Source: Desulfobacterales bacterium (GTDB lineage Bacteria; Desulfobacterota; Desulfobacteria; Desulfobacterales; JAHEIW01). Taken from it: DNA of 18,920 bases. Positions 1,941-17,615 of this stretch are shown here, piece after piece. Where the stretch lies: positions 1 to 18,920 of the forward strand of contig JAQYWI010000105.1 in the NCBI GenBank assembly GCA_030145015.1, read 5' to 3'. Position numbers and translations under genes: made by a program. The number at the start of each line of letters is the position of its first letter. Positions within the stretch are counted from its first letter, which is position 1. The notes below the pieces were generated by a model. It worked only from the letters and a program-made list of their open reading frames with translations. It did no database searches and had not been told where the DNA came from.

Positions 1941-1969
1941 TTCTAGTTTTTTTTATAAATAATCTGCGT

Positions 1970-2008
1970 AATCTGCGGATATTATTTAATCTGTGGATCT
2001 ATCTGCTA
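1970..2008. repeat. 39-nt dispersed repeat, right copy
   Basis: Direct partner of the block at 325-363, with one mismatch in 39 bases (an A for a T at the centre). A shorter fragment of the same words follows at 2010-2023. It lies in the gap between the VKOR-DsbA gene and the convergent lipoprotein gene. Confidence 0.75.
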
Positions 2009-2058
2009 TAATCTGCGGATATTTTATAAGCTGCAAATTGTTGGATGCTTCTGGCGCT

Positions 2059-4441: not shown

Positions 4442-4631
4442 GTGCCTAAAATGAACTAAAATGAGCTAAAGTGCCTAAAGTTGTGGTGTCGCTTCGCTCC
4501 ATCTTTTATAAAAGTGATCGTTCGACCCTGTCGTTAGACCCTGTCGTTAGACCCTGAGGCTCTCGAAGGGAGGCTCTCGAAGGGAGGCTCTCGACAGGCA
4601 GAATTTCCTAACTTTTGTCACTTTAGATCAC
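4442..4631. repeat. Repeat-built, MITE-like intergenic block
   Basis: This block fills most of the gap between the metallophosphoesterase and the amidase. Its left edge has four units of a 9-10 nt word, RTG-N(2-3)-CTAAA, at 4442-4479. Its right edge has the same word reversed (TTTAGATCAC, 4622-4631). Between them are two small tandem arrays: a 13-nt unit GACCCTGTCGTTA at 4524-4536 and 4537-4549 with a partial third copy, and a 14-nt unit AGGCTCTCGAAGGG at 4557-4570 and 4571-4584 with a variant third copy at 4585-4598. CCTGTCG (4527-4533) and CGACAGG (4592-4598) form an inverted pair. No ORF lies inside. Inverted ends suggest a small non-autonomous element, but no target duplication was established. 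Confidence 0.55.
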
Positions 4632-12439: not shown

Positions 12440-12760
12440 TTAGGATAAATTTGAGGTGAATTGTTTGAGATAGTTTTCCCATTCCATGGGCAGGAGTTGT
12501 TTTTTGGCGGTGTTGCACGTCTTGCAGCACGGCACAACATTTCCTTTGGTGCTTTTTCCGCCGCGGGAAATCGGGACGACATGATCCATGGTGAGTTCTT
12601 TGGAAGGCGTTGAGCGCTTGCAGTAATGGCACTCTCCTTTTGCCACCCGGCGTTTCCACCACTGGGACCCTCTGATCTCCCGGGCTTTACGGCGTTCTCG
12701 TTTTAGATCTGTTTCTTCCAGATCATAGGCAAAAGGTTGGATGGTTTTTCTTTTTTTCAT
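12440..12760 (-). CDS. Small HNH endonuclease
   Basis: A 106-residue protein of the HNH family. A basic N-terminal half (RERRKAREIR, WWKRR) precedes the nuclease core: the zinc-binding CxxC at C44/C47, D59-H60 with the general-base histidine in MDHVVPISRGG, N74 in GNVVPCCKTCN, the second CxxC at C79/C82 and N83. This is an intact HNH (H-N-N type) with its zinc knuckle. It is the size of free-standing HNH proteins found in many bacterial chromosomes and phages, whose role (repair, restriction or homing) is mostly unknown. It is not IscB, Cas9 or McrA: no other domain is attached. It lies between the ATP-grasp gene (93 nt) and the zinc-ribbon gene (200 nt), with no methylase or phage gene near. 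Confidence 0.88.
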   Translation of the reverse strand: MKKRKTIQPFAYDLEETDLKRERRKAREIRGSQWWKRRVAKGECHYCKRSTPSKELTMDHVVPISRGGKSTKGNVVPCCKTCNTAKKQLLPMEWENYLKQFTSNLS

Positions 12761-13791: not shown

Positions 13792-14163
13792 TTACTCAAA
13801 TCTACCCTCGGCAAGCCTTGTGTGAACCTGGTTGTGGTCTTCCTCCGAAGGAGGTGGCTGAACCACGTGTAAGATGGTCAGCTCTGTCAGGGCCTTAATC
13901 CCCCTCTTGAGGCCTTTGGGGACGATGATTAAATCATCTTTTCGGGCCGTTAAACGTTCGTCCCCGGTCACAACCTCTGCTTCGCCTTCGAGAATGTACA
14001 AAACCAGATCTACCCCCGGCGTATGTACCGGAATAAACTGGCCGGTCTTAAAATAAGCCAGTACGACCTTCATCCCGGCGCTCTGGTACACAACGTTCGG
14101 GGCAAACATTTTATCACCAAATGACTTCAATTCTCCGGCATTGACCTTTACGATTTCTCCCAT
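13792..14163 (-). CDS. Cupin-domain protein with degenerate metal site
   Basis: A 123-residue single-domain cupin. ATG 14163 is chosen over the in-frame TTG two codons earlier because AAAGGAG lies at the right distance before the ATG. Motif 1 is present as GQFIPVHTPGVDLVLYILEG (41-60). The glycines and H47 fit, but the second histidine is proline (P49) and the usual glutamate is replaced by L53 or D52. Motif 2 is VPKGLKRGI (81-89), where the usual histidine is lysine or arginine. The protein may therefore bind metal poorly or not at all and may act as a binding protein instead of an oxygenase. It is the first of the minus-strand series and faces the divergent motA-like operon. Confidence 0.82.
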   Translation of the reverse strand: MGEIVKVNAGELKSFGDKMFAPNVVYQSAGMKVVLAYFKTGQFIPVHTPGVDLVLYILEGEAEVVTGDERLTARKDDLIIVPKGLKRGIKALTELTILHVVQPPPSEEDHNQVHTRLAEGRFE

Positions 14164-14313
14164 TTTCAACTCCTTTCATTAGCACGTTACACTTAGAGGA
14201 ATTTTGCGATCAGCTTCTTCTTATATACGTTAGTCATCATAATCCAAATTACCATACCTCAAGGGTGCACGCCCGGCCGGAAAACCAACGTGTTAGAATT
14301 TGGTGTTAGGCGG

Positions 14314-14466
14314 ATGCCGCCGATGCTGAAAAATATGATTCGGCCCCATGCGGTGCCTTCCGCTAAATTAGAGTTGCTAGGCAATTTCTGCACCGTGAAT
14401 CCAGATAATTATACCGAAGCCAAATTTAACCACCTGAAATTAATGCGAAAATATTTTGGCACATAA
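14314..14466 (+). CDS. Possible 50-codon ORF or gene remnant
   Basis: An ATG frame at 14314 (another ATG at 14323) encodes a 50-residue product containing MLKNMIRPHAVPSAK, LELLGNFCTVNPDN and HLKLMRKYFGT and ends at TAA 14464. The composition looks protein-like (balanced, with no run of rare residues), and the frame stays open upstream to about 14230 without a start. No good ribosome binding site is seen. The last codons overlap the sigma-54 promoter candidate. It could be a small gene or the 3' end of a decayed gene; I recognise no family. Confidence 0.3.
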   Translation: MPPMLKNMIRPHAVPSAKLELLGNFCTVNPDNYTEAKFNHLKLMRKYFGT

Positions 14467-14472
14467 TCTGCA
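14456..14472 (+). promoter_or_regulatory. Sigma-54 (-24/-12) promoter candidate
   Basis: TTGGCAC, five bases, then CTGCA: the invariant GG and GC are exactly 10 nt apart, as in sigma-54 promoters (consensus TGGCAC-N5-TTGCW), with one mismatch at the first base of the -12 box. A start about 12 nt after the GC would fall near 14483, exactly where the hairpin-rich leader begins, and transcription would run into the motA/motB-like pair. No upstream activator site was identified. Confidence 0.55.
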
Positions 14473-14476
14473 AATA

Positions 14477-14745
14477 GGGTGCAAGCGTTGAGTCAACGAC
14501 CACTCGCAAAGCGGGTGGCTTGGATTTTACCGCCATAGGCGGTAAAAGACAGGGGCGCGAAGTGACCCAATCGTTGCGGGTGGAACCGGGTGCGTATCAA
14601 TGACCATACCTCTCTGTGAGAGGGATGTTTGATTTTCCGGCCGTAGGACGGAAAAACAAGCGAACGTTAGTTCGCAATCATTGTGTTTGTGATCGGGTGC
14701 GTAGCGCCCGATCGGTATACAAACAACCACCCGGTTTGGAAAACC
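14477..14745 (+). ncRNA. Tandem cloverleaf-like structured RNA leader
   Basis: Two adjacent units of 107-111 nt, each starting with GGGTGC (14477, 14588; a third GGGTGC at 14695). Each unit has an outer stem closing three hairpins. Unit A: outer stem CAACGA 14494-14499 with TCGTTG 14571-14576; hairpins 14500-14518, 14525-14547 (ten perfect pairs, loop ATA) and 14552-14568. Unit B: outer stem CAATGA 14598-14603 with TCATTG 14678-14683; hairpins 14605-14627, 14633-14655 and 14660-14675. Linker lengths match between units (0/1, 6/5, 4/4, 2/2). Most stems differ in sequence yet still pair. After unit B, TGTTTGT 14684-14690 pairs with ACAAACA 14719-14725 around hairpin 14691-14713, and a last small hairpin lies at 14733-14745. 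It ends 9 nt before the AGGAGG of the motA-like gene. It may be a regulatory leader, a separate RNA, or an orphan HEARO/omega-type RNA; the family is not known. Confidence 0.65.
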
Positions 14746-14768
14746 CAATAAAACAGGAGGAATATCGC

Positions 14769-15581
14769 GTGCTGCAAAAATTAATTCTGCTCATGGGCAT
14801 CGTTCTATTTATGATCCTCTCCGGAAATGCCATCGAGAACACTTCAATAATGTTAAATCTAAAAAGTGCCCTGCTTGTTATGGCAGGCTCGCTTTTAAGC
14901 GCGTTTATCGCCTTTCCAATGAAAACATTTCGGGATCTTTTTAAAAGTCTGCTTGCGGTTTACAAACAGGAGGAGACCGATAATGAACCTTTGGTTCAAG
15001 AAATGGAAAAACTCGCCGTCATCTGGCGCCGGCATGGAATTATCGCGCTTGAGAACGCAAAAAATGCGGTCGAAAACGTTTTCCTGAACAAGGGCGTCGA
15101 GCTTGTTATTGACGGTTATAATCGGTATGACATTCGAAATATTATGGAAAAGGACTATGAACTCTACTTTTCTAGAAAAGAGTCTCAGGTAAATATTTTA
15201 AATACGCTTGCAAAGCTGGCCCCGGTTTTCGGCTTCGTAGGCACCATAATTGGCTTGATAAATGTGCTTAACAATGTGGAGGATCCGGCCCAGATCGGAA
15301 AAGGCATGGCCATGGCGCTTCTGACGACATTGTATGGTATTCTGCTTGCCAATTTTCTCTTCTTCCCGCTTGCAAAAAAACTTTCCGAACACGCAAAGGC
15401 CGAAGCCACCGTTTTAAACATTATATTAGAAGGGGTGATGGATATTGCTGATCAAAAAACGTCAAAATCCATTTCCCATCGGCTGAATTCCTATCTTGGC
15501 GTAAATCATCTCAGCCACATGAAAAAGGAAAGAGAGCACGTACACAGGGGACGACCGACGCCGCAGATGCAATCACCGTAA
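14769..15581 (+). CDS. MotA-like proton/sodium channel subunit
   Basis: A 270-residue membrane protein of the MotA/TolQ/ExbB family, which with a MotB-type partner turns ion flow into mechanical work. The start is GTG 14769, set by AGGAGG eight nt upstream; the frame is open earlier but runs through the structured leader. Two helices lie at about 3-19 and 33-50, then a cytoplasmic loop of about 100 residues with the MotA-type sequence RRHGIIALE (88-95), where charged residues touch the rotor in flagellar MotA. Helices at about 150-168 and 179-202 carry the pore sequences LAPVFGFVGTIIGL and IGKGMAMALLTTLYG and both conserved prolines (P152, P200). The polar C-terminus has His-rich residues. 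A MotB-like gene follows 25 nt later. Flagellar use is likely but not proven, since no other motility gene is in the window. Confidence 0.9.
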   Translation: MLQKLILLMGIVLFMILSGNAIENTSIMLNLKSALLVMAGSLLSAFIAFPMKTFRDLFKSLLAVYKQEETDNEPLVQEMEKLAVIWRRHGIIALENAKNAVENVFLNKGVELVIDGYNRYDIRNIMEKDYELYFSRKESQVNILNTLAKLAPVFGFVGTIIGLINVLNNVEDPAQIGKGMAMALLTTLYGILLANFLFFPLAKKLSEHAKAEATVLNIILEGVMDIADQKTSKSISHRLNSYLGVNHLSHMKKEREHVHRGRPTPQMQSP

Positions 15582-15606: not shown

Positions 15607-16527
15607 ATGGCAAGGCCAGAATCAGAAGACCTTAAGAGACGGCTTGAGTTCTCCGAACACAAAAGGGTACTCCTGCAAAAGAGGTTATCGAAGGGCGGTA
15701 TCGAAGATGATTCCACGCTATGGAGCTTTGTCGATCTCATGACACTGCTTTTGATTCTGTTTATTCTTTTTTATTCACATGCTGTGACCCATAAGAGTTC
15801 CGAAAAGAATATAGCAAGTACACAGTCACAGACCTCTGCGGACCCATCCTTTCAGGTTCCTAAAACGGCAATTGCTTCTGAATCGACAGCTTCTGATCAG
15901 GATCAGCCCAAACAGGATGTATTCAAAACCGAGGCGGAAAACCAGGACGAATCTTTAGAGCAATTAGAACAACAGGTATTGCAAACTGTCCCTGAGAAGG
16001 TCAAAAAGGACTTTTCGACCCGTTGGAATCAAAAGCGTCTGGTACTGGTCTTGGGTGAAAAGGTTGCGTTCAATGTGGGGAATGCGGATCTGCTGCCTGA
16101 TTTTCGGCCGACATTAAAACGGATCTCTGAATTCATTTCACTGCAGAAGGGGTATAAAGTCGCCGTCGCCGGGCATACGGACGATGCGCCCATTCACACC
16201 ATCCAGTTCCCCACCAATTGGGAACTGTCGGCCATCCGAGCCGTGAATGTGGCTAAATTCATGATCTTACATGGCGTCAATCCCCATCGTATCGCGATAG
16301 AGGGATATTCAGCCTATCGGCCAATACACCCAAATACAACCTCTCATAATAGACACGCAAATCGGCGCGTGGAGATAACCTTGATCAAAGAGGGTGAAAA
16401 CGGAAAACCAGCTGAACAGATAGAGATTTCCTCTGCACGTGACGCATCCATGAAACCCCAAAAAGCCGCCAACCTTCCCACCTACCCTAATAAACGATAC
16501 CACAGCGCCCGGGGATATCCTTTTTAA
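15607..16527 (+). CDS. MotB/OmpA-like stator subunit
   Basis: A 306-residue partner of the preceding MotA-like protein. A basic cytoplasmic N-terminus leads to one membrane helix (about 39-57) with the ion-binding aspartate D43 in SFVDLMTLLL, the position of Asp32 of E. coli MotB. A linker of about 80 polar, Ser/Gln/Asp-rich residues follows, then an OmpA-type peptidoglycan-binding domain (about 148-262) with AVAGHTDD, NWELSAIRA, IAIEGYSAYRPI and NRRVEITLI, so the protein can be anchored to the cell wall. About 45 extra polar residues follow the domain. GAGGGAATTAC before the ATG gives a usable ribosome site. The two genes surely form one operon. A flagellar, gliding or other envelope motor is possible. 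Confidence 0.9.
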   Translation: MARPESEDLKRRLEFSEHKRVLLQKRLSKGGIEDDSTLWSFVDLMTLLLILFILFYSHAVTHKSSEKNIASTQSQTSADPSFQVPKTAIASESTASDQDQPKQDVFKTEAENQDESLEQLEQQVLQTVPEKVKKDFSTRWNQKRLVLVLGEKVAFNVGNADLLPDFRPTLKRISEFISLQKGYKVAVAGHTDDAPIHTIQFPTNWELSAIRAVNVAKFMILHGVNPHRIAIEGYSAYRPIHPNTTSHNRHANRRVEITLIKEGENGKPAEQIEISSARDASMKPQKAANLPTYPNKRYHSARGYPF

Positions 16528-16854
16528 AATCCGCAGCCGGGAACATGTCGAGGACGTTGTGGGCTCATTAGACTTATCGTTTCATCGGAGAAAGCGGAGG
16601 CAAAATCGTCTTTGCCGGCTCAGGCCGAAAAACGATCCGTCTTCGCTAAAGCTTCGCCGGACAGGCACATCTTCGCTCTGGCGAGCTTCGCCGCCCCGGA
16701 CGAGTCGTGTTCCCCTGTTCATTAAGGCGATTGGGTCGATTGGGTCGATTGGTTTGATGGATCCATAGAAACTTATAATTTTATGGCCCCCCTATTGGTC
16801 TATAACGGTCAGATTTTTTGTAAAGATTTAGGGTTAATCGACGATATTAAGTGT
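16528..16854. other. Gene-free gap with short repeats
   Basis: No supported gene. A 9-nt unit, GATTGGGTC, repeats three times at 16729-16755 (the last copy varies). A GC-rich part at about 16625-16705 has repeated CTTCGC/GCTTCG words and a small hairpin GGCGA-GCT-TCGCC. Short open frames cross the region but lack ribosome sites. No T-tailed terminator for the motA/motB-like operon was found. Confidence 0.5.
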
Positions 16855-17493: not shown

Positions 17494-17615
17494 CAGGTGT
17501 CTGGTGTCGGGTGTCAGCAAACAGATGACTGAGGGCAGAAAATAGTCTGGCTTTTGTCTGCTGTCATCTGTTTTCTGTGCGCTGGCCTCTATATCTTCCT
17601 GACACCCGACACCTG
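17494..17615. repeat. Long compound inverted repeat
   Basis: A perfect 15-bp outer pair, GGTGTCGGGTGTCAG at 17503-17517 with 17599-17613, encloses a perfect 11-bp inner pair, AAACAGATGAC at 17519-17529 with 17563-17573. A weaker GCAGA/TCTGC pairing lies at the centre. The left arm also has GGTGTC in three near-tandem copies. The strands would fold into a long stem with a bulge on one side. It may be a small dispersed palindromic element; no coding content or terminal duplication is seen. Confidence 0.65.

What the first reader, a model, noticed from the sequence alone, without database searches (positions are those of the whole stretch)
14477..14745. Tandem, covarying cloverleaf-like RNA upstream of a motA/motB-like operon
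Two adjacent units share the same layout (outer stem closing three hairpins, nearly equal linkers, mostly 3-nt loops), yet their stems differ in sequence while still pairing. The outer stem is CAACGA/TCGTTG in one and CAATGA/TCATTG in the other, a compensatory C-G to T-A change. The second hairpin is TTTTACCGCC/GGCGGTAAAA against TTTTCCGGCC/GGACGGAAAA. Covariation inside a duplication indicates selection on structure. A third closed stem follows (14684-14725). No ORF explains it. It may be a new structured leader or a free RNA. The many short-loop hairpins also recall HEARO/IscB omega RNAs, in which case this would be an orphan copy, because no IscB gene is in the window.
Basis: partly seen in the sequence, partly recalled or inferred. 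Interest (0 to 1): 0.85.

Follow-up and report, generated by a model that had tools for sequence, protein, structure and literature searches.

The report
Nested jumping hairpin element beside motA
The two cloverleaf-shaped units are real, but they look like one small, repeated, apparently mobile DNA element sitting inside another copy of its kind, dropped into the leader of a motor-protein operon, rather than a dedicated RNA switch of that operon or an orphan omega RNA.

Summary
In detail: 14494-14576 and 14598-14683 each fold as matching cloverleafs (z -6.5 and -5.1). It is not a leader specific to motA. A model built from 21 Desulfobacterota copies, window excluded, hits the window at 94 bits and finds 7 to 78 dispersed copies in each of 6 genomes; 29 of 146 sampled genomes of the order have a match. 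Copies are about 128 nt with sharp ends (GAGTCAAC...CAAT), no terminal inverted repeat and no target duplication. Helices covary (20 of 36 pairs). The first hairpin and its TCA tag match an end of IS200-type elements in other phyla. The window holds element B (14597-14726) inside the terminal hairpin of element A (14491-14749); the same composite occurs at four other loci. It lies between a sigma54-like promoter and the motA ribosome-binding site; a 74%-identical motA orthologue has that promoter and a short leader without the element, an empty site. Best filing: a non-autonomous palindrome-associated transposable element (PATE/MITE-like). The mobilising enzyme was not identified. Rfam has no family for it.

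The parts
14457..14471 (+). sigma54-like -24/-12 site TGGCACATAATCTGC
   Evidence: script scan of both strands for TGGCA[CT]N6TGC finds 2 places in the window, this one and 18602; the site TGGCATAGTATCTGC is at the same place upstream of the motA orthologue in G001. Consensus recalled; function not tested
14491..14749 (+). composite element A(B): outer element A from AGTCAAC to CCCAAT, interrupted by element B
   Evidence: R1 model hit 14491-14608, 94.3 bits; composite copies in G001 (86%, two) and G002 (80-81%, two); ends by comparison with 50 copies
14494..14576 (+). cloverleaf of element A: outer stem 14494-14499/14571-14576; hairpins 14500-14518, 14525-14547 (extended by 14520-14522/14550-14552) and 14553-14568
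   Evidence: fold; covariation of the family
14584..14592 (+). left arm of A's terminal hairpin (AACCGGGTG)
   Evidence: pairs with 14728-14736; uninterrupted form AACCGGGTGC-nnn-GCACCCGGTT in single copies
14597..14726 (+). element B, nested in the loop of A's terminal hairpin
   Evidence: same kind of junctions in L130, L225, L345, L349; a copy aligning to exactly this stretch stands alone in G073 (L313)
14598..14683 (+). cloverleaf of element B
   Evidence: fold
   Evidence: fold
14728..14736 (+). right arm of A's terminal hairpin (CACCCGGTT)
14755..14760 (+). ribosome-binding site AGGAGG of motA, outside the element
   Evidence: sequence
14769..15581 (+). motA-like gene (MotA_ExbB), GTG start
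   Evidence: Pfam PF01618, E 7e-27
15607..16527 (+). motB-like gene (MotB_plug and OmpA)
   Evidence: Pfam PF00691 and PF13677

Best explanation
The feature is a small non-autonomous mobile DNA element of the PATE/MITE kind, about 128 nt, made of near-terminal palindromes and two inner hairpins that fold into a cloverleaf plus a terminal hairpin. One copy (A) lies in the 5' leader of a motAB operon, between a sigma54-like promoter and the ribosome-binding site. A copy of a second type (B) lies in the loop of A's terminal hairpin; such A(B) composites occur elsewhere, so the composite probably moved as a unit. Inferred mechanism: a Y1 (HUH) transposase of the IS200/IS605 superfamily, supplied in trans, recognises the folded single strand, cuts near the TGA[CT] tag and moves the element without target duplication. 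In the leader the element is probably transcribed as passive structured sequence. Shown by comparison: structure, covariation, dispersal, sharp ends, nesting, empty site, likeness of one end to IS200 ends. Inferred: the enzyme, single-strand transposition, neutrality for motA. The 0.85 is for a dispersed mobile element inserted here; for a Y1 enzyme as its mover I would say about 0.6.
For: A model without the window finds it at 94.3 bits. 40, 58, 78, 33, 23 and 7 copies in 6 genomes, at most 150 candidates scored per genome; 29 of 146 genomes of the order, patchy. In 50 copies information is at most 0.17 bit at positions -20 to -9 and 1.1-1.9 bits from -7; no direct flank repeat (observed mean 3.64, permuted 3.57, 58 of 200 permutations as high) and no clear terminal inverted repeat (3.56; shuffled mean 3.32, maximum 3.62). 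[AG]TCA stands 0-2 bases before GACCAC in 29 of 33 Desulfobacterota-type and 85 of 87 other matches, against 333 of 12000 random places. An IS200-type tnpA lies within 1.3 kb on the inner side of the hairpin in 17 of the 87 others (10 of the 21 with at least 900 nt there) and within 1 kb on the outer side in 0 of 87. Empty site in G001 (leader alignment score 34.0, 500 base shuffles mean 2.9, maximum 25). Four further composite copies. Mixed orientation to neighbouring genes: upstream gene 21 with, 20 against, 9 unknown; downstream 27 with, 17 against, 6 unknown.
Against: No autonomous copy was found: 0 of 33 Desulfobacterota-type loci has an IS200-type tnpA nearby (29 of them with at least 900 nt on the inner side). 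IS200-like TnpA is matched in 8 of 17 element-bearing genomes, in some only as fragments, and in none of copy-rich G001, G002, G003, G073 and G139. A copy at E up to 0.001 lies in the fetched flank of 1 of 24 Y1 genes. Y1 genes occur in 18 of 20 genomes without a model match as well as in 10 of 10 with one, so co-occurrence says nothing. One end only was shown to resemble IS200 ends. The empty-site comparison is between species (74% protein identity), and part of its score comes from the conserved promoter-side and start-codon bases. The model R1 does not score element B. Downstream genes read with the element somewhat more often than against it (27 to 17). Transposition was not observed.
Confidence: 0.85

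Rival explanations
1. REP-like element served by a domesticated RAYT/TIRYT Y1 enzyme rather than by an IS200-type TnpA.
For: RAYT-like Y1 genes, mostly 320-360 aa, are in 5 of the 6 first genomes, including copy-rich ones without a match to IS200-like TnpA. 41 of 50 copies do not overlap an ORF of 100 aa or more by over 40 nt, by a crude test.
Against: Several RAYT-like genes have their own GGGACGTCC/GGACGTCCC-like ends instead of cloverleafs (by eye); 1 of 24 Y1 loci has a copy in its fetched flank. The GTAG tag of REPs (PMC3733652, passages read) is not seen next to the hairpins (by eye). G005 has 23 copies but only two Y1 matches, both IS200-like.
Confidence: 0.25
2. Structured RNA with its own function (leader or free RNA) that is also repeated.
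For: Strong covariation. G-T cells outnumber A-C cells 45 to 13 on the strand read as in the window, so that strand appears to be the folding one. In the window it lies downstream of a promoter-like site. Downstream genes read with it in 27 of 44 known cases.
Against: Not tied to one gene: up to 78 copies per genome, mixed orientation. No model hit at 3 of 3 motA orthologues. A folded single DNA strand bound by a transposase would give the same covariation; the G-T excess is inflated by related copies and by the model-fitted alignment.
Confidence: 0.1
3. Orphan HEARO/IscB omega RNA.
Against: No HEARO match in the window at the gathering threshold, at E up to 10 in 14200-14800, or in 13 related loci. 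Of the 14 window ORFs scanned with Pfam or NCBIfam, the only one with HNH domains is a 106-aa protein (12443-12760) without another domain.
Confidence: 0.01

Closest known systems
PATEs (palindrome-associated transposable elements) of Haloquadratum, PMC3119063 (passages read)
   Same: No terminal inverted repeats, near-terminal palindromes similar to IS605-type ends, conserved terminal oligonucleotide, no target duplication, too short for a transposase, many divergent copies, frequent insertion of one element in another, movement inferred although nearly all IS200-type genes there are broken.
   Different: An archaeon. Here three hairpins are closed by an outer stem into a cloverleaf, plus a terminal hairpin, with covariation across genomes; likeness to IS200 was shown for one end only.
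IS200-type elements of other phyla (loci L133, L155, L164)
   Same: End hairpin CCACCCGC/GCGGGTGG followed, in the tnpA direction, by the TGA[CT] tag.
   Different: They carry tnpA; the Desulfobacterota element does not, and it usually has one more base between hairpin and tag.
REPs and RAYTs (PMC3733652 passages; PMC8266576 abstract and outline)
   Same: Extragenic palindromes in many copies, thought to be moved in trans by a Y1/HUH enzyme.
   Different: REPs are 20-40 bp with a GTAG or CGTC tag; this element is about 128 nt, multi-hairpin, with a TCA tag, and no RAYT gene examined was flanked by it on both sides.
HEARO / omega RNA (RF02033)
   Same: Several short hairpins; link to IS200/IS605-like mobility (recalled).
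   Different: No Rfam match and no linked nuclease gene found.

Membership tests
PATE | no terminal inverted repeats | tested here: met
   50 copies: longest inverted word 3.56 on average; shuffled mean 3.32, maximum 3.62
PATE | near-terminal palindromes | tested here: met
   hairpin 1 starts 9 nt from AGTC in the window; the terminal hairpin ends about 10-15 nt from the 3' end of most copies
PATE | palindromes related to IS200/IS605 ends | tested here: inconclusive
   one end matches IS200-type ends in other phyla; no match shown for the other end
PATE | no target duplication | tested here: met
   (58 of 200 permutations as high as observed); none seen at the motA site
PATE | too short to encode a transposase | tested here: met
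   125-132 nt in alignment A1; 259 nt for the window composite
PATE | mobilised by a transposase in trans | not testable with these tools
   no cognate gene identified
REP / REPtron | GTAG or CGTC tag at the palindrome | tested here: not met
   the conserved tag is [AG]TCA
REP / REPtron | RAYT gene flanked by the repeats | tested here: not met
   a copy in the fetched flank of 1 of 24 Y1 genes in 6 genomes
HEARO (RF02033) | covariance-model match | tested here: not met
motA leader RNA | conserved upstream of motA orthologues | tested here: not met
   no model hit in L295, L296, L297, L307, L309; L297 has 520 nt of upstream sequence only

The most novel reading that the evidence does not exclude
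A new family of strand-specific cloverleaf mobile elements in Desulfobacterota that nests into its own terminal hairpin and spreads as composites, moved in trans by a Y1 enzyme unlinked to it, with a second role as structured RNA in leaders such as that of motAB.
Probability: 0.12. Interest if true: 0.6.

Novelty: new member of a known kind. Interest (0 to 1): 0.35.

Why it matters
It accounts for a striking covarying structure as a mobile palindrome, a reminder that covariation inside a duplication does not by itself prove a functional RNA. It also offers a defined element, with ends, an empty site and nested copies, on which to test how IS200-like palindromes spread without a linked transposase.

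Tried and rejected
HEARO and every other Rfam family. tRNA or tmRNA (none). Phage and plasmid copies by blastn (none). MotA relatives in viral contigs (none). Intrinsic terminators: 4 terminator-like sites in 14200-14800 against a shuffled mean of 0.9; two of them overlap, and their T-rich tails overlap the next stem, so I did not read them as terminators, but termination was not excluded. No sigma70-like promoter. Linked RAYT genes as movers (one search used a faulty filter and was replaced). attC sites and retron RNAs were considered from memory only and not tested. Alignment A1 uses 21 of the 22 full-length copies listed (L186 left out as divergent); the 22 were picked by hand from the loci printed, leaving out truncated and nested ones. 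R1 does not score element B at E up to 1 except as a fragment; B was placed by eye and by BLAST. My first sigma54 pattern had the wrong spacing and was replaced by the scan. In one search one composite (L349) was cut at the wrong place and its row there is not used; it is printed correctly. In PMC6006769 the terms I looked for did not occur. Literature searches listed no paper that by title or abstract describes this element; only the papers named were opened, and the library lacks most subscription journals.

Full report
What is there. The region 14491-14749 lies between a cupin-like gene on the other strand (13792-14169) and a motA/motB-like pair (14769-15581, 15607-16527). Unit 1 (14494-14576) and unit 2 (14598-14683) fold alone into the described cloverleafs with z -6.5 and -5.1, and the stem that follows with z -5.7; 0 of 200 shuffles folds as well in each case. 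The stretch 14470-14745 has z -7.3 as RNA, and its complement -7.5 as DNA. The outer stem of unit 1 forms when the element is folded without upstream flank, but is replaced by pairing with upstream bases in the minimum-energy folds of 14470-14745 and 14485-14768; in the latter some bases of the ribosome-binding site are paired too. Rfam has no match at the gathering threshold in the window, and in 14200-14800 only two weak ones, MicF at E 9.7 and snoRNA sR46 at E 8.7.

It is a dispersed repeat. Some are Desulfobacterota copies with the whole cloverleaf and a terminal hairpin, about 128 nt. Others are ends of IS200-type elements in Clostridia, Coriobacteria, Anaerolineae and others. A covariance model, R1, from 21 Desulfobacterota copies and none from the window hits the window at 14491-14608 with 94.3 bits, E 1.6e-21. 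In the 6 genomes reached first it finds 40, 58, 78, 33, 23 and 7 matches at E up to 0.001, with at most 150 candidates scored per genome. In a sample of the order 29 of 146 genomes have a match, from single weak ones to the ceiling of 23 scored candidates. No genome is held for the window itself; names given to a few close MotA relatives point to Desulfobacterales.

Structure under selection. On 31 copies (the window, 10 loci of the training set and 20 from further genomes), 96.4% of cells form standard pairs against 37-51% with slid partners, and 20 of 36 pairs have changes on both sides; none of 500 shuffles reaches the observed values. This alignment was fitted to the model and so leans to it. 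On the sequence-only alignment of 21 copies 7 of 36 pairs have changes on both sides, hairpin 1 being fixed there by the search pattern. With helix 4 put in register by hand, 45 cells are G-T and 13 A-C of 1106, so the strand read as in the window appears to be the folding one; relatedness of copies and the model inflate this.

A mobile unit with defined ends. In 50 copies (30 of the best matches of 6 genomes and 20 chosen from 8 further genomes), information is 0.02-0.17 bit at positions -20 to -9 before the GACC core, then 0.6, 1.1, 1.7, 1.7, 1.6, 1.7, 1.3 and 1.9 bits over GAGTCAAC. The other end is CAAT in many copies, more varied in some genomes. There is no direct repeat of the flanks and no clear terminal inverted repeat. 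41 of 50 copies do not overlap an ORF of 100 aa or more by over 40 nt in a crude test. The upstream gene reads with the element in 21, against it in 20 and is unknown in 9; the downstream gene reads with it in 27, against it in 17 and is unknown in 6.

Link to IS200 ends. The tag [AG]TCA stands 0-2 bases before GACCAC in 29 of 33 Desulfobacterota-type and 85 of 87 other matches, against 333 of 12000 random places; it was not part of the search pattern. An IS200-type TnpA (query from L164) is encoded within 1.3 kb on the inner side of the hairpin in 17 of 87 others (10 of 21 with at least 900 nt there; most of the rest are cut off by contig ends) and within 1 kb on the outer side in 0 of 87. 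The classes were split by a motif; several loci counted as other are Desulfobacterota. None of the 33 Desulfobacterota-type loci has such a gene.

Nesting. In the window 14584-14592 and 14728-14736 pair as the arms of element A's terminal hairpin, and its loop holds element B with its own terminal hairpin. Single copies have this hairpin closed by a short loop. BLAST of 14480-14760 finds four composite copies, two in G001 at 86% and two in G002 at 80 and 81%, with the same kind of junctions. A match to exactly 14597-14726 stands alone in G073 at 74% (L313), and R1 scores that copy at 85 bits. L152 and L234 look like composites that lost the middle (by eye). R1 does not score the window's B at E up to 1 except as a fragment.

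Empty site. Three motA orthologues of 73-75% identity (G009, G001, G006) have no model hit in the loci held, though for G006 only 520 nt upstream are available. In G001 the upstream region keeps the sigma54-like site and has a short leader. With the window's flanks joined around the element the two leaders align end to end with a few short gaps, score 34.0 against a mean of 2.9 and a maximum of 25 in 500 base shuffles; the conserved ends of the leader contribute to that score. The insertion lies between promoter-like site and ribosome-binding site, leaving both in place; a neutral or mild effect on motA is inferred, not tested.

Which enzyme. Y1_Tnp genes are in 6 of 6 first genomes, mostly RAYT-like, in several cases with their own GGGACGTCC/GGACGTCCC-like ends. 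A copy at E up to 0.001 lies in the fetched flank of 1 of 24 Y1 genes. IS200-like TnpA is matched in 8 of 17 element-bearing genomes, in some only as fragments. Y1 genes are in 10 of 10 further genomes with a model match and 18 of 20 without. The enzyme therefore stays open; many of the genomes are in many contigs and may be incomplete.

Comparison. The features match PATEs as described for Haloquadratum, including one element inserted in another and movement although nearly all IS200-type genes there are broken (PMC3119063, passages read). A PATE-like sequence has been noted in Halanaerobium (PMC7290912, passages), and PATEs are mentioned for other bacteria (PMC4853749, passages). CGTC palindromes likewise seem to lack a dedicated transposase (PMC3733652, passages). 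Searches listed no paper that by title or abstract describes this element. I file it as a new member of a known kind.

Noticed in passing
window 14457-14471: sigma54-like site of the motA-like operon, conserved in place in a 74%-identical orthologue (L296).
   Followed up: partly
window 17503-17613: Another imperfect inverted repeat (18-nt arms, 94% complementary, and an inner 26-nt pair, 77%), MITE-like.
   Followed up: no
window 12443-12760 (-): Small stand-alone HNH protein (106 aa); Pfam gives HNH domains only.
   Followed up: no
G001 and G002 copies, e.g. L265, L266, L283, L289: Several copies sit inside a longer repeat with similar flanks on both sides (TACCGCTTTTCATAATAATGTTCCG on the left, GCGGCATAAGTGGTTGTAG on the right).
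   Followed up: no
L250, L256, L259, L260 and others: RAYT-like Y1 genes with inverted GGGACGTCC/GGACGTCCC-like ends, recalling the TIRYTs named in PMC3733652.
   Followed up: no
G009:C34:49893-50511: Two partial copies of the motA N-terminus directly upstream of the full gene.
   Followed up: no
window 1969-2034, 4518-4594, 16728-16752: Short tandem repeats with units of 9-18 nt.
   Followed up: no
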